A stretch of DNA of 8,539 bases, taken from assembly GCA_024644775.1 (NCBI GenBank), contig JAHEHB010000229.1:1-8539 (forward strand), written 5' to 3'. The notes under the pieces were generated by a model. That model saw only the letters and a list, made by a program, of their open reading frames with translations. It made no database searches and was not told the origin of the DNA. Of the stretch, positions 1 to 8,539 are shown piece after piece. Made by a program: the position numbers and the translations under genes. Positions within the stretch are counted from its first letter, which is position 1. Every line of letters starts with the position of its first letter. Origin of the DNA: Deltaproteobacteria bacterium. GTDB taxonomy: Bacteria; Desulfobacterota; Desulfobacteria; Desulfobacterales; SURF-15.

Positions 1-476
1 CGAAGGATGAGCGAATATTTGCCGTGGGGGATGCCGTTACAATTACAAAAGAAAATACGCACACCCCTTGGACATGGCCCCAGGCCGTATCCCAGGGTAA
101 ATTGGCCGCAGCCAATCTGTATCGCCCGGTTCCTGCCCCGGTAAAGGTGCTTAGCCGGGTAAACGCCATGAATCTATTTGGCCTTTCGCTAACGATTTTG
201 GGGGCACCCGTACCGGGAGCAGAGGTTATTTCTTATGCGAAACCGGAAAACCGTGTTTATCGCGAACTATTCATTGTAAATGATCAGATCGTGGGGGGAG
301 CGCTCGTGGGAGATGTTTCCGGCGCCGGAATTTTTCACGCGTCGATGATATCTGGGATTTTCGACAGTCGTGCGAAAAATAAGGATCCGGATTTTGTGAA
401 ACCACACGGCAGAGCGTTTTCGCAGCGGGCATGGTACGATCTTAACCAATATCGACGGGCATGTATCATATCTTAA
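1..476 (+). CDS. FAD/NAD(P)H-dependent oxidoreductase, C-terminal part (5' end outside window)
   Basis: The reading frame is open from base 3 and continues off the left edge, so this is the C-terminal 158 or so residues of a longer protein; the GTG at 24 is internal. The first visible residues, KDERIFAVGDAV, match the second FAD-contacting motif (hydrophobic strand then G-D) near the end of the FAD domain in pyridine-nucleotide-disulfide-type oxidoreductases. About 110 residues follow that resemble the C-terminal domain of rubredoxin reductase and NirB-type flavoproteins, including a YRELFIVNDQIVGGALVGD strand pattern. No signal peptide or membrane segment is visible in this part. The stop lies 15 bases before the next gene, a ferredoxin-like protein, so co-transcription is likely. 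A role as the NAD(P)H-to-ferredoxin electron entry point of the downstream cluster is inference. The N-terminal half, and any fused domains, cannot be seen. Confidence 0.85.
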   Translation, partial: KDERIFAVGDAVTITKENTHTPWTWPQAVSQGKLAAANLYRPVPAPVKVLSRVNAMNLFGLSLTILGAPVPGAEVISYAKPENRVYRELFIVNDQIVGGALVGDVSGAGIFHASMISGIFDSRAKNKDPDFVKPHGRAFSQRAWYDLNQYRRACIIS

Positions 477-491
477 AGAGGATAAAAAAAT

Positions 492-1217
492 ATGATAATC
501 TATAAACCTATTTGTGTCGGATGCGGGCGGTGCCATCCCTATTGCCCAACGGGAGCAATATATTTTGAAGATATGAAAAGTGCTGTGGACCAGGATGTTT
601 GCTATGAGTGTGGAAACTGCCTTAGAGTTGAAATCTGCCCTGTGGATGCTATCGCAGAATCCCCTCATGTGTATGAATATCCCAGGGCTCTAAGGAAATA
701 TTTTAGCGATCCCAATGCCACACATGCCGTAACCGGTATTCAGGGCCGCGGGACAGAAGAGTCGAAAACAAACGATGTTACCCATCGTTGCGGTCCCGGC
801 GAGGTGGGTATCGGTATTGAAGTCGGCCGACCGACATTGGGCATGGGCCTTGAAGACATTCAAAAAATCACGCGAGCCCTGGCCAGAAACGGTATTACCG
901 AGATTGAAGCAAATAACCCGATCCATTCGATGATCAACGATCCTGCCACGGGTGATCTAAAATCAGAATTGCTGAATGAAAAGGTTCTCAGTGCCATCAT
1001 TGAAATTCAGGTAAAACGAGATCGTCTTCGGGATGTTTTAAAGACAATAAAGGAGGTTGCCAGGGAAGTGGACAGTGTTTTTACGCTCGACGTTTACACC
1101 TTACTTGAACCGGAACTTACAGTACCACGGGAAGTTCTGGATATCGTCGAATCCGAAGGATTTTCCTGGAGACCCAATGCAAAGATAAATATGGGGCTGG
1201 GACGGGTTTCGGGGTAG
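492..1217 (+). CDS. Ferredoxin-like protein F1 with two [4Fe-4S] motifs and a GRGTEE-type C-terminal module
   Basis: 241 residues, cytoplasmic by sequence. Residues 8-18 give a classical C-x2-C-x2-C-x3-C-P cluster motif (C8, C11, C14, C18). A second motif, C37, C40, C43, C49-P, has five rather than three residues before the last cysteine. After the ferredoxin domain comes a distinctive GRGTEESKTNDV segment (about residues 85-96), then a GEVGIGIEVGRP stretch. Next is a region with the alternating strand-helix-strand look of an ACT or ferredoxin-like fold, about 165-205, ending in NMGLGRVSG. The same layout recurs in the protein at 2174-2902, so the two are paralogues. The start ATG is preceded at 9-base spacing by GAGGA (478-482). 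The likely role is an electron-transfer subunit of a larger oxidoreductase with the neighbouring M proteins. From memory only, similar GRGTEE modules occur in proteins labelled 6-hydroxynicotinate reductase; I could not verify this and do not assign that function. Confidence 0.85.
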   Translation: MIIYKPICVGCGRCHPYCPTGAIYFEDMKSAVDQDVCYECGNCLRVEICPVDAIAESPHVYEYPRALRKYFSDPNATHAVTGIQGRGTEESKTNDVTHRCGPGEVGIGIEVGRPTLGMGLEDIQKITRALARNGITEIEANNPIHSMINDPATGDLKSELLNEKVLSAIIEIQVKRDRLRDVLKTIKEVAREVDSVFTLDVYTLLEPELTVPREVLDIVESEGFSWRPNAKINMGLGRVSG

Positions 1218-1224
1218 GCCCTTG

Positions 1225-1280
1225 GACAGATGACAGATGGCAGAAGACAGATGACAGAGGAAAGAAGGCGGAGGACAGAG
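1225..1280 (+). repeat. Heptanucleotide tandem repeat, 8 units
   Basis: Eight consecutive 7-base units starting 8 bases after the F1 stop codon: GACAGAT, GACAGAT, GGCAGAA, GACAGAT, GACAGAG, GAAAGAA, GGCGGAG, GACAGAG. The consensus is GACAGAD, and no bases are gained or lost between units. The strand is purely purine apart from C and T at fixed positions. Such heptamer arrays resemble the short tandemly repeated repetitive sequences known from cyanobacteria, but relationship is not implied. The array is non-coding in the operon direction. Confidence 0.9.
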
Positions 1281-1300
1281 GGCTTCCCTCCCCGGGGGGG

Positions 1301-1348
1301 ATTGGGGAATTGAGGAATTTGGGGATTGAAGGACTATAGAATTGATAG
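1301..1348 (+). repeat. Degenerate octanucleotide tandem repeat (consensus ATTGRGGA)
   Basis: Six consecutive 8-base units can be read: ATTGGGGA, ATTGAGGA, ATTTGGGG, ATTGAAGG, ACTATAGA, ATTGATAG, with the last two units strongly decayed. The best segment, AATTGAGGAATT at 1308-1319, recurs in exact inverted orientation at 1462-1473. The array follows the heptamer array after a C4G7 run (1290-1300). Confidence 0.7.
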
Positions 1349-1358
1349 AATACATTAA

Positions 1359-1375
1359 TCCCGCTTGTAGCGGGA
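1359..1375 (+). other. Short perfect stem-loop in the F1-M1 gap
   Basis: TCCCGCT (1359-1365), loop TGT, AGCGGGA (1369-1375): a perfect 7-bp GC-rich stem with a 3-base loop. A run of six T residues starts only at 1391, 15 bases after the stem, so this is not a canonical intrinsic terminator. It lies roughly midway between the inverted octamer arrays. It could be an mRNA processing or stability element, or the core of a dispersed intergenic repeat. Confidence 0.6.
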
Positions 1376-1461
1376 CTCACTTTAGTTCACTTTTTTAGGG
1401 AGATCGGTGGGGAATTTAGAGATTTGGAAATGTTGCAACTAAAAATTTGTTTTAAAATTTG

Positions 1462-1495
1462 AATTCCTCAATTTCTAAATTCACAATTCCTCAAT
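1462..1495 (-). repeat. Inverted copy of the ATTGRGGA octamer array
   Basis: Read on the minus strand, this stretch gives ATTGAGGA, ATTGTGAA, TTTAGAA, ATTGAGGA, the same octamer family as 1301-1348 but reversed. AATTCCTCAATT at 1462-1473 is the exact reverse complement of 1308-1319, and an 11-base copy recurs at 1485-1495. The array ends about 11 bases before the M1 start codon, so an RNA hairpin joining the two arrays would bring M1's ribosome binding site AGGA (1496-1499) to its base. Confidence 0.7.
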
Positions 1496-1506
1496 AGGAT
1501 TTTGAT

Positions 1507-2154
1507 ATGACACACAGTTTGCACAGAGAGGGACAATTAGATTCATTGGTTAAAGACTATGCTGTCTTTATCTATCCGGCGCGGGGTTTCAATTATAAAG
1601 GCTGTGTCCCAAAAGTTCGACGGCTGGTGGAAATTGTATATCAGACCGGGCCTGCCAATATGATTGCAACCACGCTTCGGCAGAATCTCTACAGCGGGGT
1701 ACGCCCGGAAGCGGTACTCGACAGCATTAAGGAAGGGTGCCGTGTTTTCAGCGTTTTCAGCAGCAGAGAAAAACTGAAACGGTTGCTCGAAAGATTTAAA
1801 GCCGAGGATCAAGGTATTTCCGTTGTCGTAAGCGGTTTGATCGATAAAGTTCGAGATATTGCGACAGAAGCAGGATTGAATCCGCATACCATCAATCTGT
1901 CATTGGGGGTACATGGTAATGTCGATACACTACCGCCGGCGGATATCCGGCAGTTTACGACCATGTGCGGTCACGGGATGGTGTCACCGATTCTCGTTCG
2001 GGATGTTATCCGTAAGGTTAAAACGCAAAAAACAAATACTTGGGAATGCAGCCTGGCGTTGGCGAAACCATGCAGTTGCGGCATTTACAATCCCAATCGT
2101 TCCCAGGAATTACTCAATGAAATGACGCCACTCTATACAGTAGATAGATGGTGA
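1507..2154 (+). CDS. MTHSLHR-family protein M1, function unknown
   Basis: 215 residues, no signal peptide or membrane segment. I do not recognise the family. It begins MTHSLHREG and is collinear without gaps with the protein at 3559-4206; by hand count 134 of 215 residues are identical (62%). Conserved landmarks shared by all three M proteins are PHTINLSLG (126-134; AHTVNYSLG in M2), TTMCGHGMVSP (151-161), and a C-x-C-G-I-x-N segment (189-195). C154, H156, C189 and C191 are the obvious candidates for metal or Fe-S ligands. M1 and M3 additionally share an ARGFNY and a PKVRRL segment near the N-terminus. The start ATG has AGGA (1496-1499) at 7-base spacing. Placement between two ferredoxin-like genes suggests a partner subunit of a redox complex; whether it is catalytic is inference. 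Confidence 0.85.
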   Translation: MTHSLHREGQLDSLVKDYAVFIYPARGFNYKGCVPKVRRLVEIVYQTGPANMIATTLRQNLYSGVRPEAVLDSIKEGCRVFSVFSSREKLKRLLERFKAEDQGISVVVSGLIDKVRDIATEAGLNPHTINLSLGVHGNVDTLPPADIRQFTTMCGHGMVSPILVRDVIRKVKTQKTNTWECSLALAKPCSCGIYNPNRSQELLNEMTPLYTVDRW

Positions 2155-2160
2155 TATTAG

Positions 2161-2166
2161 AGAGGA
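2161..2166 (+). promoter_or_regulatory. Ribosome binding site deciding the F2 start
   Basis: AGAGGA sits 7 bases before ATG 2174, which favours that start over the in-frame TTG at 2168 that lies only one base after the motif. Confidence 0.6.
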
Positions 2167-2173
2167 ATTGAAC

Positions 2174-2902
2174 ATGCCCGTTATCGATCCGGAAAAATGC
2201 ACAGGGTGCCGAACGTGCCAAACCTACTGTTCTGTTGATGCGATTCTTTTCGAAGACAAAAAGTGCCATATCGATCCCGAGCTTTGCACGGAATGTTATG
2301 TCTGTTTGAGAATGACTGTTTGTCCGGAGGGAGCCATCATCGAAGAGGATTTAGAGGGTTTCTATAAGCAGCTTCAACATGTACTTAGCGATCCTGTTGA
2401 AACCCACCAGGTCACTGGGGTTACCGGCAGGGGCACCGAAGAAGTCAAAACAAATGATGTGTCCGGCCGGTATCGAAAGGGGGAGGTCGGGCTCTCTATC
2501 GATATGGGGCGGCCCGGCACAGGAGTGTATCTTCGAGATGCCGAGAAAGTCGCCATGGCAGCCACCAAGGCCGGGTTTGAGCTTGCTCCCCCGGAAGATA
2601 CCCCGCTTGCAGCCGTGATGACGAATTTGTCCACAGGAAAGCTACAAGATGATTGCTTAGACTGTCGTCTTCTTTCCGTCATTATTGAAGGAAAATGTAA
2701 AGAGGAAAAGGTGAAGAATGTACTTAAGGCGCTGCAGGAAGTTGAAGATAAAATCGATACGGTTTTTTCGTTGGGGTTAATCAGCAGGGTTGATGAAAAC
2801 GGATATTGCAGCGCTCTCGATCATCTTGATGAACTCGGCATTCCTCAGCCACATCGGGGAAAAGTAAACGTGGGACTGGGGCGACCGTTAGCAGAGGAAT
2901 AA
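2174..2902 (+). CDS. Ferredoxin-like protein F2 with two [4Fe-4S] motifs, paralogue of F1
   Basis: 242 residues from ATG 2174. First cluster motif: C9, C12, C15, C19 (C-x2-C-x2-C-x3-C). Second: C38, C41, C44, C50-P, again with the five-residue gap seen in F1; an extra C31 is absent from F1. The segment THQVTGVTGRGTEEVKTNDV follows, then a GEVGLSIDMGRP stretch. Further on is an RLLSVIIEGKCKEEKVKNVL region that reads like strand-helix of an ACT or ferredoxin-like fold, and the C-terminal NVGLGRP echoes F1's NMGLGRV. It starts 19 bases after the M1 stop and ends 16 bases before M2, so the five genes are probably one transcript. The likely role is electron transfer within the same cytoplasmic complex. 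Retention of all eight cluster cysteines in both copies argues that both are functional, perhaps in different heteromers. Confidence 0.87.
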   Translation: MPVIDPEKCTGCRTCQTYCSVDAILFEDKKCHIDPELCTECYVCLRMTVCPEGAIIEEDLEGFYKQLQHVLSDPVETHQVTGVTGRGTEEVKTNDVSGRYRKGEVGLSIDMGRPGTGVYLRDAEKVAMAATKAGFELAPPEDTPLAAVMTNLSTGKLQDDCLDCRLLSVIIEGKCKEEKVKNVLKALQEVEDKIDTVFSLGLISRVDENGYCSALDHLDELGIPQPHRGKVNVGLGRPLAEE

Positions 2903-2918
2903 TGGAAGGAGTATTCAA

Positions 2919-3557
2919 ATGACGCATTCCTTACACCGTTCGGGTGATATTGAATCTCAAAAGAAGGACTTTGTTTGGTTTATGTATCAGACAAAGGGTG
3001 TCAATGACAAAAATATTAAACCCAATGCGCTTGAGTTCATTGCGGCAGCCGAAGCCGTGGGATCTGAAAATTGGGGTGATGTAAAAACCGGTCCGAAAAT
3101 TTTCTATTCCGTAGAGGAAATAAAAGACAAAATCACAGACAAATCAAGACTGCGAGGTGTCTTTACAAGAAGAGATCAGGTAGTAGATTTTCTAAAACGT
3201 ATCAAAGAAAAAGACACGGGCATGTCTGTCGTAATTGCGGGTGTGTTATCCGAGGTGATCCCTGCCTGTAAAGAAGCGGGTGTGAGAGCACACACCGTTA
3301 ACTATTCTCTGGGGGTCTGGGGAAAAAAAGATAAACTGCCGGATGACACCACGTTGTCGATTACAACCATGTGCGGTCACCACATGATTTCACCCAAGTT
3401 TGTAAAGCATGTTATGAAGCGGGTGGAACGCGGCAAATTAACATCGGAAGAAGGCGCATTGGAACTGGCGAAATTTTGCTACTGCGGAATTTTCAATCAG
3501 GTCCGATGCACCGATATTCTGAAAGCAAATATCGCATCCTCTGAGCAAAAGACATAA
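2919..3557 (+). CDS. MTHSLHR-family protein M2, divergent member, function unknown
   Basis: 212 residues. It opens MTHSLHRSGD and keeps the family landmarks AHTVNYSLG (124-132), TTMCGHHMISP (149-159) and CYCGIFN (187-193). Residues C152, H154, C187 and C189 have exactly the spacing of C154, H156, C189 and C191 in M1 and M3. Outside these blocks it differs strongly: the ARGFNY and PKVRRL segments are replaced, and the C-terminal TPLYTV(D/N)RW tail is missing. The fixed ligand-like residues with a changed surround suggest a heteromer partner of M1 or M3 rather than a redundant copy. AAGGAG (2906-2911) lies 7 bases before the ATG. Unrecognised family; function not assigned. Confidence 0.85.
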   Translation: MTHSLHRSGDIESQKKDFVWFMYQTKGVNDKNIKPNALEFIAAAEAVGSENWGDVKTGPKIFYSVEEIKDKITDKSRLRGVFTRRDQVVDFLKRIKEKDTGMSVVIAGVLSEVIPACKEAGVRAHTVNYSLGVWGKKDKLPDDTTLSITTMCGHHMISPKFVKHVMKRVERGKLTSEEGALELAKFCYCGIFNQVRCTDILKANIASSEQKT

Positions 3558-3558
3558 A

Positions 3559-4206
3559 ATGACACACAGTCTCCATCGAGAAGGAACCCTCGATTCGCTC
3601 GAAACTGATTATGTGTTGTTCATCTTTCCAGCACGAGGGTTTAACTATGCCGGCAGCGCACCGAAAGTGCGCCGTCTAATGGAATTTGTATACCAGACAG
3701 GCCCTTGTAATACCCTCGTCAGTACATTGCGTCGCAACCTTTATAGTGGGGTTACCCCTGATGAAATTTTAGACAATATTCAGGACGGTTCCCGTGCTTA
3801 TGCAGTTTTTAACAACAAAGCAAAGATAAAGGAAATCCTTCTGCGTATTCAGGAGGCAAATGAGGGGATTTCTATCATCGTCAGCGGGCTCATAGAGCGC
3901 ATCCGGGATTTTACTACCGAAATGGGGATGGATCCCCATACCATCAATCTTTCCCTCGGCATTCTGGGTGAGACGGATCGCCTGCCGCCTCCGGATATTC
4001 GGCAGTACACGACCATGTGCGGGCACGGAATGGTTTCGCCGAATCTGGTACGTGACCTTATCCGTCGGGTGAAAAAACGGAAACTGAGTCCCTGGAAGGC
4101 GAGTGTGTTGCTGGCGTCTCCTTGCATTTGTGGCATTGTGAATCCTCACCGATCCGAGACGCTCCTCCAAAAAACAACCCCTCTCTATACGGTGAATCGC
4201 TGGTGA
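3559..4206 (+). CDS. MTHSLHR-family protein M3, close paralogue of M1, function unknown
   Basis: 215 residues, aligning to M1 end to end without a gap at about 62% identity, including C154, H156, C189, C191 and the terminal TPLYTVNRW. Its ATG begins one base after the M2 stop codon, and no strong Shine-Dalgarno sequence precedes it, so translation is probably coupled to M2. This ties M2 and M3 production together and supports an M2-M3 heteromer. It is the last gene of the redox cluster, as a 347-bp gap follows. The family is not one I can name; a metal- or Fe-S-binding redox subunit is inference from the Cys/His pattern and neighbours. Confidence 0.86.
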   Translation: MTHSLHREGTLDSLETDYVLFIFPARGFNYAGSAPKVRRLMEFVYQTGPCNTLVSTLRRNLYSGVTPDEILDNIQDGSRAYAVFNNKAKIKEILLRIQEANEGISIIVSGLIERIRDFTTEMGMDPHTINLSLGILGETDRLPPPDIRQYTTMCGHGMVSPNLVRDLIRRVKKRKLSPWKASVLLASPCICGIVNPHRSETLLQKTTPLYTVNRW

Positions 4207-4364: not shown

Positions 4365-4435
4365 GATTCTTGGTTTGAGCCTCACATTGAAAGCCTTTTA
4401 CGGGCAAAGATCATTCTAAAGAACTTGGAAAAAGC

Positions 4436-4463
4436 TTGCAAAACCATGTCTGTGTGATATTTT
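4436..4463 (+). promoter_or_regulatory. Candidate sigma70-type promoter for the aldolase-gdhA unit
   Basis: TTGCAA (4436-4441), a 16-base spacer, and TATTTT (4458-4463) preceded by TGA, which would act as an extended -10. It leaves about 95 bases of leader before the aldolase start. Matches are moderate and the surrounding DNA is AT-rich, so chance occurrence is possible. Confidence 0.3.
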
Positions 4464-4555
4464 CAACATTTCAAGAATCCTTGAACGATTAAAAAGACGC
4501 TGGTTTTTCGCAAAGAGATTGCAACCATTCATATCGCTGTCATAAATCCAATAAT

Positions 4556-4563
4556 GGAGGGAG
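4556..4563 (+). promoter_or_regulatory. Ribosome binding site deciding the aldolase start
   Basis: GGAGGGAG is a strong Shine-Dalgarno sequence whose GGAGG core ends 5 bases before ATG 4566. The upstream in-frame ATG at 4554 overlaps this motif and has no ribosome binding site of its own, so 4566 is the better start. Confidence 0.75.
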
Positions 4564-4565
4564 AA

Positions 4566-5354
4566 ATGAGACAGAATGTAGTGAAAAAAAGACTAAAAAA
4601 TGGTGAATTTGTGTTTGGAACGATGATCAAGGAAATGCTGACAAGTCCAATTGTTGACCTTTTAGAACTTGCAGGCTTCGATTATTTTGTTCTCGACATG
4701 GAACATGCCCGATATAATATGCCAATCATTACGGGTATCCTTCAGTATGCTAGGAAAAGTTCGATAACCGGCGTTGTAAGAATTCCGGAGTTAAACTATG
4801 CCAATGTTGCGAAAGCGCTCGACATGGGAGCCGAAGGGATTTGGGTTCCTCACATTGACACAGAAGATGAAGCCAGCCAACTGGTTCAATATGCAAAATA
4901 TCCCCCCGAAGGAAAGCGGGGAGCAGCGGTGCCACCTTTCCGAGTAAAAGAACTTCAAATGGCGGACGGTCATGCGAACTATTTTAAAGGATGCAACGAT
5001 GAAACACTCTTAATCGCTCAGATTGAAAGCCGTCAAGCCATCGGAAACATGGACAAGATTGCCGGTGTCGATGGTATCGACGTCTGCATGATGGGCACAA
5101 TGGATCTTTCCCTGGATATGGGATTTCCCGGACAGGGAGGACACCCTGAGGTAAAAAACGCCATTCAAAAAGTAGTGGATGCCTGTAAAAAGGCCAATAT
5201 CGCCTCTGGTACGCACATTGCCGGTATCGATACGATCCGTTACTGGATGGAGCAGGGCATGCGCATGATCACCTGTTCTTATGAGAGCAATTTTATTATC
5301 GACCGCGGCACGGAAGTGTTAAACCTGCTGAAAGACGGATTTATTGAAAGATAG
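4566..5354 (+). CDS. HpcH/HpaI-family class II aldolase
   Basis: 262 residues, the usual length of this family of divalent-metal-dependent pyruvate or 2-oxoacid aldolases (HpaI, GarL, RhmA types). Family landmarks are all visible: DMEHARYN (44-51, with the catalytic-region H47), VVRIPELN (70-77, with R72 equivalent to the substrate-binding Arg), IES with metal ligand E154, and GTMDLSLDMG with metal ligand D180. The segment KYPPEGKRGA corresponds to the substrate-side loop. The expected reaction is reversible cleavage of a 4-hydroxy-2-oxoacid to pyruvate plus an aldehyde in the cytoplasm. The exact substrate cannot be read from sequence, and DMEHARYN differs from the DGEHAPNN of hydroxyheptanedioate aldolase. 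gdhA follows after 32 bases, so the two are probably co-transcribed; both act on 2-oxoacids, hinting at carbon-nitrogen metabolism of a shared substrate. Confidence 0.9.
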   Translation: MRQNVVKKRLKNGEFVFGTMIKEMLTSPIVDLLELAGFDYFVLDMEHARYNMPIITGILQYARKSSITGVVRIPELNYANVAKALDMGAEGIWVPHIDTEDEASQLVQYAKYPPEGKRGAAVPPFRVKELQMADGHANYFKGCNDETLLIAQIESRQAIGNMDKIAGVDGIDVCMMGTMDLSLDMGFPGQGGHPEVKNAIQKVVDACKKANIASGTHIAGIDTIRYWMEQGMRMITCSYESNFIIDRGTEVLNLLKDGFIER

Positions 5355-5386
5355 AGTTACTTGCGCCGCTTGCTAAGAGGTGGTTG

Positions 5387-6736
5387 ATGTCGGGTATTTT
5401 AGAATCGATCCAGGAAAAAGACCCAGGTGAAGAGGAATTTCATCAAGCGGTAAAAGAAGTCATAGATACGGTACAACCCGTATTGGATCGAAATCCTGAA
5501 TACGTTCACGCCGGTATACTTGAGCGGCTTATAGAACCGGATCGAGTCATCACATTCCGTGTACCTTGGACCGACGATCAGGGTCGCGTTTGCGTAAACC
5601 GGGGGTTTCGTATCCAAATGAACAGTGCGATCGGTCCGTACAAAGGCGGTCTGCGGTTTCACCCTTCGGTAAATCTGAGCATCATGAAATTTTTGGCCTT
5701 TGAACAGGTGTTAAAAAACGCACTTACCACACTCGCCTTGGGAGGTGCTAAAGGTGGATCGGACTTTGAACCGAAAGGAAAATCTGATAATGAAGTGATG
5801 CGGTTTTGCCAAAGTTTTATGACGGAACTATTTCGCCATATCGGTCCCGATACGGATGTTCCAGAGGGCGATATGGGTGTCGGAGCCAGAGAAATCGGTT
5901 ATCTTTTTGGAATGTATCGGAAGTTGCAGAATGAATTTACCGGTATGATCACAGGAAAAAGCCTAGGATGGGGAGGCAGCCTCATCCGGGCACAGGCGCC
6001 AGGATACGGTCTTGTTTATTTTGCTGCTGAAATGCTGGCCACTCGAAACGATAGTCTGGAAGGGAAGACCTGTCTGATATCCGGTTCGGGAAACGTTGCA
6101 CAAAACACTGCAGAAAAGATTATAGAACTTGGTGGCAAGGTAATCACGTTTTCCGATTCTTCGGGCTATATCTATGATGAGGAAGGTATTGATAGAAAAA
6201 AACTGACGTATGTTAAACGTTTAAAGAACATCCAAAGGGGAAGGATTGAAGAATACTTAGGCAAATATCCCCAAGCCGTTTACACTCAAGCAGATCTTTC
6301 TTTAGATTGCAACCCGCTTTGGGACCATTGGGCAGACTGTGCGTTTCCCTGCGCCACCCAGAACGAGATTCGAGAAAAAGATGCTTATAACCTGATCAAC
6401 CACGGCATCAAATTGGTTTGCGAAGGTGCCGATATGTCCTGTACGCCAAGGGCGACTGACATTTTTGTCGATAAGAAAATGCTGTATGCGCCCAGCAAAG
6501 CTTCAAATGCCGGCGGGGTAGCGGTATCCGGACTAGAGATGGCTCAAAACAGTATGCGGATAAGCTGGATGGCAGAAGAAATCGACGATCGTTTAAAGCT
6601 CATCATGAAGGGTATTCATCGGGCGTGCCTCGATGCAGCAAACGAATACGGTAATCCAGGTAACTACCGGACAGGCGCAAACATCGTCGGATTTGTTAGA
6701 GTTGTAAATGCTATGTTAGATCAGGGCGTTATATGA
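5387..6736 (+). CDS. gdhA: NADP-type glutamate dehydrogenase
   Basis: 449 residues, the standard length of hexameric small-subunit GdhA, and similar throughout to the E. coli enzyme. It interconverts 2-oxoglutarate plus ammonia and L-glutamate. Substrate and catalytic residues are present: K86 (GPYKGG), K110 (EQVLKN), K122 (GGAKGG), D162 (PEGDMGVGARE) and S381 (AVSGLEMAQN). The dinucleotide fold shows SGSGNVAQ (232-239) followed by SDSSG (256-260), the same as E. coli's NADP enzyme, so NADP(H) is favoured. Odd point: the usual RPEATGYG reads RAQAPGYG (201-208), changing E to Q and T to P beside the cofactor site, and PMGG reads ALGG at 117-120. AAGAGG (5375-5380) is placed for ATG 5387 rather than the TTG three bases earlier. 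It is probably co-transcribed with the upstream aldolase. Confidence 0.95.
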   Translation: MSGILESIQEKDPGEEEFHQAVKEVIDTVQPVLDRNPEYVHAGILERLIEPDRVITFRVPWTDDQGRVCVNRGFRIQMNSAIGPYKGGLRFHPSVNLSIMKFLAFEQVLKNALTTLALGGAKGGSDFEPKGKSDNEVMRFCQSFMTELFRHIGPDTDVPEGDMGVGAREIGYLFGMYRKLQNEFTGMITGKSLGWGGSLIRAQAPGYGLVYFAAEMLATRNDSLEGKTCLISGSGNVAQNTAEKIIELGGKVITFSDSSGYIYDEEGIDRKKLTYVKRLKNIQRGRIEEYLGKYPQAVYTQADLSLDCNPLWDHWADCAFPCATQNEIREKDAYNLINHGIKLVCEGADMSCTPRATDIFVDKKMLYAPSKASNAGGVAVSGLEMAQNSMRISWMAEEIDDRLKLIMKGIHRACLDAANEYGNPGNYRTGANIVGFVRVVNAMLDQGVI

Positions 6737-7669: not shown

Positions 7670-7993
7670 ATGCAATCGTTAGAGAGAAGAAAACTTGAGC
7701 GTTTTGATCTGAGTATTCCTGCAAAAATCCGATTTGCCGTTACCGGAAGGAAGCAGGAAGAAATAGGCCTGACAACCATCAATATCTGCTCTGGCGGTGC
7801 GTTCTTTAAGACAACTCAACCGCTTCCCGTGGGAACCAAAGTCGATGTCGATCTCACGCTTCCACTCGATACGTTAAAAAATATTAAAGATATTAAAAAA
7901 AAACTGTCGATCAATGTGTCTGGGAAGGTACTTCATATTGAACCCACCGGTATGGGTGTCGGCTTTGATGCGAAATATCAACTCTTTTCTTAG
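7670..7993 (+). CDS. Small single-domain PilZ protein (putative c-di-GMP receptor)
   Basis: 107 residues from ATG 7670, the size of a stand-alone PilZ domain. PilZ domains bind cyclic di-GMP through an N-terminal RxxxR and a D/N-x-S-x-x-G motif. Here RRKLER (6-11) supplies R7 and R11, and NICSGG (38-43) occupies the second motif with Cys40 where Ser is usual. The rest fits the beta-barrel pattern: GGAFFKT, LPVGTKVDVDLTLP, SGKVLHIEPTGMGVGF. No other domain is attached, so it probably acts by binding a partner protein. The gene lies downstream of the VpsT-like regulator, so both may read c-di-GMP. Its stop codon overlaps the stop of the opposite-strand gene. Ser-to-Cys may be tolerated, but c-di-GMP binding is not assured. 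Confidence 0.85.
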   Translation: MQSLERRKLERFDLSIPAKIRFAVTGRKQEEIGLTTINICSGGAFFKTTQPLPVGTKVDVDLTLPLDTLKNIKDIKKKLSINVSGKVLHIEPTGMGVGFDAKYQLFS

Positions 7994-8539
7994 GACGAAG
8001 ACACCGTAATTTTTTTAACAACAACCCGTCCCGCTTCCCGTTCCGCACGCAGGACAAAATCGTACATGTCTCGCTGAAGACATAAAACCGGATCTTCCGG
8101 CGGAAAGTAAGGTTTTCCGGTACGCATGAATTTTTGAGCCTGTTTATGAAAGATTATTTCCCGAAGTGCCTGAACATGGTCGTAGCTTCCGGCGCCTAAA
8201 AGATGTGCGATGTACGTCGCGCACCATTCATCTTCGGGAGCCGGTTCTCTGAGATCCCACCCCATGGCTACCAGGCTTACCTGTTGGATCTTTTTTGAAA
8301 GAATGTAGTTTGCCGATGCCCGCGCCAAAGCAAAGCTTCCGATAAGGACCTCATCGGAATGGTTTAACGCGGCCAACGCGCCTTGAACACCGGAGGAGGT
8401 TCGCTGAACAACGGTTTTACCTTCAAAGTATGACGTATCCTGTTGTAAGATTTCACTCGGAGAATTTCCAAAATCAAATCCCTGAATCGGGGCGCCGCCA
8501 ACTTCTCCAACCAAAATCAGTTCATGATCCTCTCTTTTC
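7990..8539 (-). CDS. comB: ComB-like 2-phosphosulfolactate phosphatase, C-terminal part (5' end outside window)
   Basis: The minus-strand frame is open to the right edge, reading KREDHELILVGEVGG at the boundary, so the TTG at 8514 is internal and the N-terminus is missing. About 183 residues are visible; the family is usually about 230-250. The ComB signatures are G-E-x-G-G-x-x-I-x-G-F-D-x-G-N-S-P close to the visible start, GKTVVQRTSSGVQGAL, an FALARA segment in place of the usual N-A-x-A, and a Met-Gly-Trp and Glu-Asp-Glu stretch near the middle. ComB hydrolyses 2-phosphosulfolactate to sulfolactate, a step toward coenzyme M in methanogens. In bacteria the homologues serve sulfolactate or other sulfonate metabolism, or an unknown phosphatase role. 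It is convergent with the PilZ gene, overlapping by 4 bases with no terminator between them. Which role applies here cannot be told. Confidence 0.85.
   Translation of the reverse strand, partial: KREDHELILVGEVGGAPIQGFDFGNSPSEILQQDTSYFEGKTVVQRTSSGVQGALAALNHSDEVLIGSFALARASANYILSKKIQQVSLVAMGWDLREPAPEDEWCATYIAHLLGAGSYDHVQALREIIFHKQAQKFMRTGKPYFPPEDPVLCLQRDMYDFVLRAEREAGRVVVKKITVSSS

What the first reader, a model, noticed from the sequence alone, without database searches (positions are those of the whole stretch)
1..4206. Possible undescribed multi-subunit redox system: flavoprotein, two ferredoxin-like and three MTHSLHR proteins
Seen: a flavoprotein C-terminus followed by genes in the order F1-M1-F2-M2-M3, with F and M each being paralogous sets and gaps of 1-19 bases except for the F1-M1 gap. 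Known: flavoprotein plus double-[4Fe-4S] subunits typically pass electrons from NAD(P)H to a terminal subunit. Inference: an F-M pair duplicated and diverged into a heteromeric oxidoreductase whose M subunits hold the reactive site. I recognise no characterised complex with this composition.
Basis: partly seen in the sequence, partly recalled or inferred. Interest (0 to 1): 0.75.

Follow-up and report, generated by a model that had tools for sequence, protein, structure and literature searches.

The report
Unnamed paired iron-sulfur enzyme family
The window carries an array of two paired proteins, one a ferredoxin and one of unknown type, that nearly always stand side by side in scattered bacteria and archaea, often beside a transporter for organic acids, and that look like the core of an enzyme whose reaction is not known.

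Summary
In detail: flavoprotein end, then F1-M1-F2-M2-M3, gaps of 1-19 nt except F1-M1 (289 nt). M has no Pfam, NCBIfam or PDB relative by sequence. F is a 2x[4Fe-4S] ferredoxin plus an unannotated domain. Over 1000 relatives of each exist. Of 779 sampled genomes 43 have both; the two others with M and three others with F show only short or weak matches. 128 of 133 M genes follow an F, and F and M co-diverge pairwise (r 0.88; 0 of 999 within-locus swaps reach it). The window shows only the operon's tail: in relatives it begins with a tripartite tricarboxylate transporter, a CooF-like ferredoxin, a Ni-CO-dehydrogenase-derived protein without most catalytic C-cluster ligands, and the flavoprotein. 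F is fused to an NADPH-type flavoprotein in 14 listed proteins and to M in 4. Best reading: F-M is the constant core of an iron-sulfur oxidoreductase for imported carboxylates with exchangeable electron modules. Reaction, direction and M's cofactor are inferred, not shown. Relatedness to 6-hydroxynicotinate reductase could not be tested. The window also holds a fossil of a fourth M.

The parts
3..476 (+). C-terminal 157 aa of the NAD(P)H/FAD oxidoreductase (FNOR-like; N-terminus beyond the window)
   Evidence: PF18267 Rubredoxin_C E 1e-7; aligned to the C-terminus of L001 5575-6846, which has Pyr_redox_2
492..1217 (+). F1: 2x[4Fe-4S] ferredoxin plus unannotated C-terminal domain
1218..1506 (+). 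Stretch without a long + strand reading frame, with short imperfect repeats, between F1 and M1; absent from L001, where F1 and M1 are 2 nt apart
1507..2154 (+). M1: MTHSLHR-family protein
2174..2902 (+). F2: paralogue of F1, partner of M2 (TTG start at 2168 also possible)
2919..3557 (+). M2: divergent M paralogue, co-diverging with F2
3559..4206 (+). M3: third M, closer to M1, without an F of its own
4408..4497 (+). Fossil of a fourth M (C-terminal CxC region); a better preserved copy stands at the same place in L001
   Evidence: M profile i-Evalue 4.5e-6 in the six-frame gap; L001 remnant
4554..5354 (+). HpcH/HpaI-type aldolase, next gene; also near F-M in L001, L031, L039
   Evidence: PF03328 E 1.9e-37
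5384..6736 (+). NADP-type glutamate dehydrogenase, next gene in the window and in L001; link to the system uncertain
   Evidence: NF006929 above its cutoff

Best explanation
F and M are the two subunits of an uncharacterised family of iron-sulfur oxidoreductases used in carboxylate (probably hydroxy- or sugar-acid) catabolism, mostly of anaerobes. Shown: F is a 2x[4Fe-4S] ferredoxin joined to a conserved domain; M is a separate conserved family; they co-occur, are adjacent, co-diverge and are sometimes fused; more than half of the loci seen carry a TTT or TRAP transporter gene nearby. Inferred: a carboxylate enters through the transporter and binds in M or at the F-M interface, where the invariant H3, H6, H127, C154, H156, C189 and C191 hold a metal or Fe-S site; F's clusters carry electrons between that site and an exchangeable module, in the window's lineage NAD(P)H - flavoprotein - CooF-like ferredoxin - CODH-like hub. 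I lean (about 60:40) to M as a terminal reductase, because the partner modules descend from electron-donating enzymes. Several F-M pairs per genome would serve different substrates; in the window M1, M2 and M3 would differ in substrate or form a heteromer.
For: Co-occurrence: the same 25 of 247 genomes; 16 of 249 with both; 1 of 146; 1 of 137. Adjacency 128 of 133, median gap 18 nt; Mantel r 0.876 against at most 0.094 in 999 shuffles; within-locus swaps 0 of 999. Fusions: M and F in one chain in 4, and GltD-like flavoprotein plus F in 14, of the 120 proteins listed of 326 found (P0275 checked). Transporters: TctA in 58, TctC in 52, DctP in 9 of 105 loci, against 257 TctA matches in about 101 Mb of 23 F-M genomes (sums), i.e. 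roughly 0.05 expected per 17-kb stretch. Modules: FNOR 33, CODH-like 32, CooF-like 31, AOR 8 of 105 (two AOR checked). Invariant residues. Confident models of both proteins (mean pLDDT 90.8 and 86.8).
Against: No activity, cofactor or substrate is known. 47 of 105 loci show no TctA within 8 kb, though many contigs are short. Neighbours are so varied (PdxA, DUF1932 dehydrogenase, LarA, aldolases, CoA-transferase, TPP enzymes) that a single reaction is hard to name. Both proteins' ferredoxin-like folds give weak hits to PII-like regulators, so a regulatory role is not excluded. The best NCBIfam match of the flavoprotein is PadH, which as I recall works in the oxidative direction.
Confidence: 0.55

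Rival explanations
1. F-M is the 6-hydroxynicotinate reductase (Hnr) type of enzyme: it reduces N-heteroaromatic carboxylates after hydroxylation by a molybdenum hydroxylase, so the family is already known under that name.
For: L035: TRAP transporter - F - M - DUF6282 protein - [2Fe-2S] subunit - Mo subunit split in two - FAD subunit. An XDH-type Mo subunit piece lies on the same strand near F-M in L130; such genes also lie further off on the other strand in L002 and L003. From memory only: Hnr of Eubacterium barkeri holds two [4Fe-4S], one [2Fe-2S] and a flavin, and its pathway has a four-subunit Mo hydroxylase and an amidohydrolase; F (8 Cys) plus M (C154, H156, C189, C191) could supply two [4Fe-4S] and one 3Cys-1His [2Fe-2S] cluster.
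Against: Only 5 of 105 loci carry XDH-type genes, two of them the same place. No source name shown in the lists (best 120 each, most entries unnamed) says so. The Hnr sequence and paper were not available. Most annotated neighbours point to sugar or hydroxy acids.
Confidence: 0.2
2. F-M works in the oxidative direction: a flavin-free hydroxy-acid dehydrogenase that passes electrons through F and the CooF-like ferredoxin to the flavoprotein and NAD(P)+.
For: LarA, Ldh_2, beta-hydroxyacid and alcohol dehydrogenases, GntP permease and aldolases nearby; flavoprotein closest to PadH.
Against: GltD-like fusions and CODH- or AOR-derived partners look like electron donors; NAD(P)-dependent dehydrogenases in some of the same loci could do the oxidation already.
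Confidence: 0.25
3. F-M is a redox-sensing regulator or coupling factor of the TTT/TRAP transporter, as PII-like proteins are for SbtA.
For: M 15-112 and F 101-213 have ferredoxin-like folds whose better hits include PII-like proteins; transporter genes are the commonest neighbours.
Confidence: 0.08

Closest known systems
Ni-CODH/CooF/FNOR gene unit (PMC6344411, passages read)
   Same: CooF-like ferredoxin, CODH-family protein and FAD/NAD(P) oxidoreductase side by side, as in the window's relatives
   Different: The CODH-family protein has lost C-cluster ligands, F and M follow it, and a TTT operon often precedes it; the passages read do not mention these, and the word tricarboxylate does not occur in the main text
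Tripartite tricarboxylate transporter (TctCBA) operons
   Same: TctC, TctB, TctA found by Pfam at the head of the operon in L001
   Different: No described TTT operon known to me carries F-M; the titles and abstract starts listed show none
6-hydroxynicotinate reductase, Eubacterium barkeri (recalled, sequence not seen)
   Same: Possibly the cofactor count, and the gene neighbourhood of L035
   Different: Homology untested; 100 of 105 F-M loci show no XDH-type Mo hydroxylase genes within 8 kb
Dihydropyrimidine dehydrogenase / GltD-type NADPH flavoproteins
   Same: F is fused to such a flavoprotein in 14 listed proteins
   Different: P0275 shows no dihydroorotate-type domain; the acceptor part is F's own domain and presumably M
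Phenylglyoxylate dehydrogenase PadH/PadI
   Same: PadH is the best NCBIfam match of the flavoprotein (149.6 bits) and PadI matches the CooF-like protein (67.3 bits)
   Different: Far below the curated cutoffs (475 and 700 bits); no other Pad subunits were seen among the L001 genes scanned

Membership tests
Ni-CO dehydrogenase (upstream CODH-like protein of relatives) | Homology to the CODH fold | tested here: met
   L126 protein against 6elq E 3.1e-60 over 5-544; the L001 protein matches only in its N-terminal part, best stretch 10-91
Ni-CO dehydrogenase (upstream CODH-like protein of relatives) | C-cluster ligands (H and five C, PMC6344411 Table 2) | tested here: not met
   In the L126 alignment the HGH stretch reads LGY and the last four C columns read W, S, E, G (assignment of columns by me); 16 short homologues (of 18 in the cluster, two under 450 aa left out) keep four N-terminal Cys in 16 of 16; L119 keeps several of the C, read by eye
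Ni-CODH/CooF/FNOR unit | CooF-like ferredoxin and FAD/NAD(P) oxidoreductase adjacent | tested here: met
   in the window only the flavoprotein end is visible
Known Pfam or NCBIfam family (for M) | A match above the curated cutoff | tested here: not met
   58 M proteins against Pfam, best E 0.001; M1-M3 against NCBIfam, best E 0.0049
Solved structures (for M) | Sequence relative in the PDB at E<=1e-3 | tested here: not met
   best E 0.053, a short CGH stretch
PII-like proteins (for M and the F C-terminus) | PII-like fold covering most of the domain, well above background | tested here: inconclusive
2x[4Fe-4S] ferredoxin (for F) | Two [4Fe-4S] Cys motifs and the fold | tested here: met
   eight Cys invariant in 47 sequences
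6-hydroxynicotinate reductase | Sequence homology to E. barkeri Hnr | not testable with these tools
   Sequence not at hand; paper not held
6-hydroxynicotinate reductase | Encoded with a Mo hydroxylase and an amidohydrolase | tested here: inconclusive
   Clear in L035 only; XDH-type genes in 5 of 105 loci

The most novel reading that the evidence does not exclude
F-M is a new class of low-potential iron-sulfur enzyme in which M, with a new Cys/His metal site, reduces (for example reductively dehydroxylates or dearomatises) transporter-delivered carboxylates without radical SAM, ATP or CoA activation, and a CO dehydrogenase that lost its active site has been recruited as its electron hub.
Probability: 0.22. 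Interest if true: 0.86.

Novelty: new variant of a known kind. Interest (0 to 1): 0.66.

Why it matters
A catalytic-looking protein family with over a thousand relatives, spread over several bacterial groups and some archaea and with up to nine matches in one genome, has no family model in the libraries searched and no known reaction. Its constant pairing, its repeated link with carboxylate transporters and its exchangeable electron modules make the substrate searchable through the adjacent binding protein TctC. The CODH-derived partner would be a case of a famous enzyme kept after loss of its active site.

Tried and rejected
Tried without result: viral contigs with M (four pattern matches, none confirmed); plasmids with F and M (no match); profile comparison of M with the F C-terminal domain (probability 9%, so I do not claim that they are related); PDB by sequence for M. 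Literature: searches listed papers, of which I saw titles and abstract starts, and none of these describes F-M; two searches found no paper (100 was a search for the M motif). PMC10838667, PMC12366334, PMC12934955 and PMC13040137 were opened at passages and did not bear on F-M. Foldseek and VIA gave no clear fold match for M; absence of a hit is not taken as a new fold. A search of 391 genomes of the class of G008 with the M-F protein P0268 gave strong matches to both halves in five genomes (G008, G521, G626, G734, G877), as separate frames; its 365 genomes with a match mostly reflect ferredoxins and are not used for co-occurrence.

Rejected: apparent F-M fusions L029:7786 and L026:9215 (an out-of-frame stretch lies between or before the parts, by eye); P0259 (probable chimera); cluster c8, which lies on the other strand over F genes, as a gene; weak archaeal F hits G976, G994, G1000 (E about 3e-4, 56 aa), the M fragment G407 (35 aa) and G1123 (E 9.6e-4) as evidence for one protein without the other. 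Taken as they stand, the 779 genomes hold 45 with an M match and 46 with an F match, 43 shared. G329 is counted as having both although its F match is an 84-nt fragment beside M.

Dropped rows: one search left out L125 (same place as L035), L050, L041, all M under 480 nt and F under 550 nt. One search counts L035 and L125 both, and its label M2 is M29 shortened by my script. One search left out two of the 25 genomes (G039, G049).
Full report
What is there. The window holds the end of a flavoprotein (3-476), F1 (492-1217), M1 (1507-2154), F2 (2174-2902), M2 (2919-3557) and M3 (3559-4206), all on the + strand, then an HpaI-type aldolase, a glutamate dehydrogenase, a LuxR-type regulator, a PilZ protein and, on the other strand, a PF04029 protein. 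Gaps are 15, 289, 13 or 19, 16 and 1 nt. F1 and F2 are 38% identical; M1 and M3 62%, M1 and M2 36%.

What the proteins are. F begins with two ferredoxin motifs and continues with a domain that has no Pfam hit but very conserved stretches (GRGTEE.KTND, GRP, K231, G235, G237). M has no Pfam or NCBIfam match above a cutoff and no PDB relative by sequence. In 58 M proteins the invariant residues are H3, H6, R7, G9, N51, G103, G110, H127, G134, G137, C154, G155, H156, C189, C191, G192 and N195: a set that suggests a metal or Fe-S site, which is inference. Predicted models are confident (mean pLDDT 90.8 for M, 86.8 for F). The M model matched only ferredoxin-like and PII-like folds, weakly; F matched ferredoxins in residues 1-60 and PII-like folds weakly in 101-213.

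How widespread. M3 has 1064 and F1 1267 relatives at E<=1e-3. A scan of one genome for each of 84,980 species with two peptide patterns gave 50 loci, by record title in deltaproteobacterial lineages, Rhodospirillales/Acetobacteraceae, Bacillota and other Clostridia-type lineages, Chloroflexi, Synergistales and Desulfurococcales/Sulfolobales archaea. In samples of four groups, M and F occurred in the same genomes: 25 and 25 of 247; 17 and 16 of 249, the odd one a 35-residue fragment; 1 and 4 of 146, three of the four weak F hits; 2 and 1 of 137, one M hit a weak fragment. That is 43 of 779 with both. Four of the 43 were the centres of the samples, chosen through M, and 11 in all hold a locus that had been found through M before; 32 do not, as far as coordinates tell. 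One Bacillota genome (G275, one 2.9-Mb contig) has nine M matches.

F and M belong together. Of 133 M genes examined, 128 have F within 400 nt upstream, median gap 18 nt. The five exceptions are M3 of the window and of L001, one near a contig end (L043), and two whose F fell under my length filter: L039, where F is cut by the contig end, and L101, where F is found in two pieces. Over the 128 pairs the F and M distance matrices correlate with r 0.876 (999 shuffles: at most 0.094). When partners are swapped inside the 24 loci with several pairs, 0 of 999 swaps reach it (best 0.813). F1-M1 and F2-M2 of the window each have their nearest relative in the matching pair of L001. Among the 120 proteins listed of 326 found with a joined F-M query, M and F are one chain in P0257, P0268, P0279 and P0282, and F is the C-terminus of a GltD-like FAD/NADPH oxidoreductase in 14 proteins of 706-718 residues (P0275).

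The rest of the operon. The closest relative, L001, shows what the window cuts off: TctC, TctB, TctA (Pfam), a CooF/HydN-like ferredoxin, a 483-aa CODH-like protein, the flavoprotein (Pyr_redox_2 plus Rubredoxin_C; best NCBIfam PadH), then F-M-F-M-M. Over 105 loci with both F and M (of 107 sources, the window included), TctA lies within 8 kb in 58, TctC in 52, a GntR regulator in 34, FNOR in 33, CODH-like in 32, CooF-like in 31, a DUF1932 dehydrogenase in 13, DctP in 9, PdxA in 8, AOR in 8. These rest on similarity to a few labelled proteins; many contigs are short, so they are lower bounds, and L035 and L125 are the same place. In 23 of the F-M genomes of the first sample there are 257 TctA matches in about 101 Mb, so chance would put roughly 0.05 TctA into such a stretch.

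The CODH-like protein. The 572-aa form of L126 aligns over its length with a Ni-CODH (6elq, E 3.1e-60), but the HGH stretch and the last four C-cluster Cys are replaced (ligand pattern from Table 2 of PMC6344411, passages read; columns assigned by me). Sixteen short forms (of 18; two under 450 aa left out) keep the four Cys of the B-cluster motif in 16 of 16; that of L001 matches CODH mainly in its N-terminal 90 residues. L119 has a 423-aa form that still has several of the C-cluster Cys (by eye). PMC6344411 kept only sequences without deletions in the clusters, so such proteins would probably not be in its set; PMC8776680 mentions small mini-CooS proteins in clade G. The passages read do not mention F-M or TTT beside them.

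Other electron modules. AFOR-domain proteins near F-M were checked by Pfam in L032 and L108; eight loci have AOR, in L107 and L108 directly after a CooF-like ferredoxin. With the GltD-like fusions this gives three alternatives around a constant F-M core. All derive from enzymes that usually donate electrons, which is why I lean towards M as a reductase; this is inference.

Substrate. Transporters are TTT, TRAP or, in L112, a GntP-type permease. Neighbours include PdxA, DUF1932 and beta-hydroxyacid dehydrogenases, Zn- and Fe-alcohol dehydrogenases, LarA, Ldh_2, aldolases, FAA hydrolase, CoA-transferase III, aconitase-like proteins, amidase and PrpD. They point to carboxylic, often hydroxylated acids, differing between loci. 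L035 differs: TRAP, F, M, DUF6282, then a four-part molybdenum hydroxylase, a layout that recalls, from memory, the nicotinate pathway of E. barkeri with 6-hydroxynicotinate reductase.

History of the array. Between M3 and the aldolase the window holds a fossil of a fourth M at about 4408-4497 (profile i-Evalue 4.5e-6 in the gap's six frames), better preserved at the same place in L001. The 289-nt F1-M1 gap is an insertion relative to L001, where the two genes are 2 nt apart; it holds short tandem repeats.

Verdict. This is a widespread two-subunit family with unknown reaction that I could not find described: searches listed nothing on it by title or abstract start, and searches found no paper, within a library that lacks most subscription papers.

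Noticed in passing
window 1218-1506: The F1-M1 gap is an insertion with imperfect 7-21-nt repeats (GACAGAT...), absent from L001.
   Followed up: partly
window 4408-4497 and L001 about 10716-10811: Remnant of a fourth M gene after M3; similar short C-terminal M pieces (about 34-35 residues) were found in G065, G340 and G407.
   Followed up: partly
L131 3878-4726: F protein with an N-terminal twin-arginine-like signal and lipoprotein-like Cys (read by eye), suggesting an exported F-M variant.
   Followed up: no
L035 9273-15375: F-M beside DUF6282 and a molybdenum hydroxylase whose Mo subunit is split into two genes.
   Followed up: partly
L126 4215-5936, L132 10865-12586, L119 11244-12515: CODH-family proteins at different stages of C-cluster loss, a possible series from enzyme to scaffold.
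   Followed up: partly
G275 (L107-L113): One Bacillota genome with nine M and eleven F matches, with AOR, TRAP, TTT and GntP neighbours: a good genome for finding substrates.
   Followed up: partly
G976, G994, G1000: Weak matches (E about 3e-4) to positions 51-106 of the F C-terminal profile inside 424-551-aa archaeal reading frames, all at the same place.
   Followed up: no
window 7990-8538 (-): PF04029 (2-phosphosulpholactate phosphatase family) protein downstream; a relative stands in L001.
   Followed up: no
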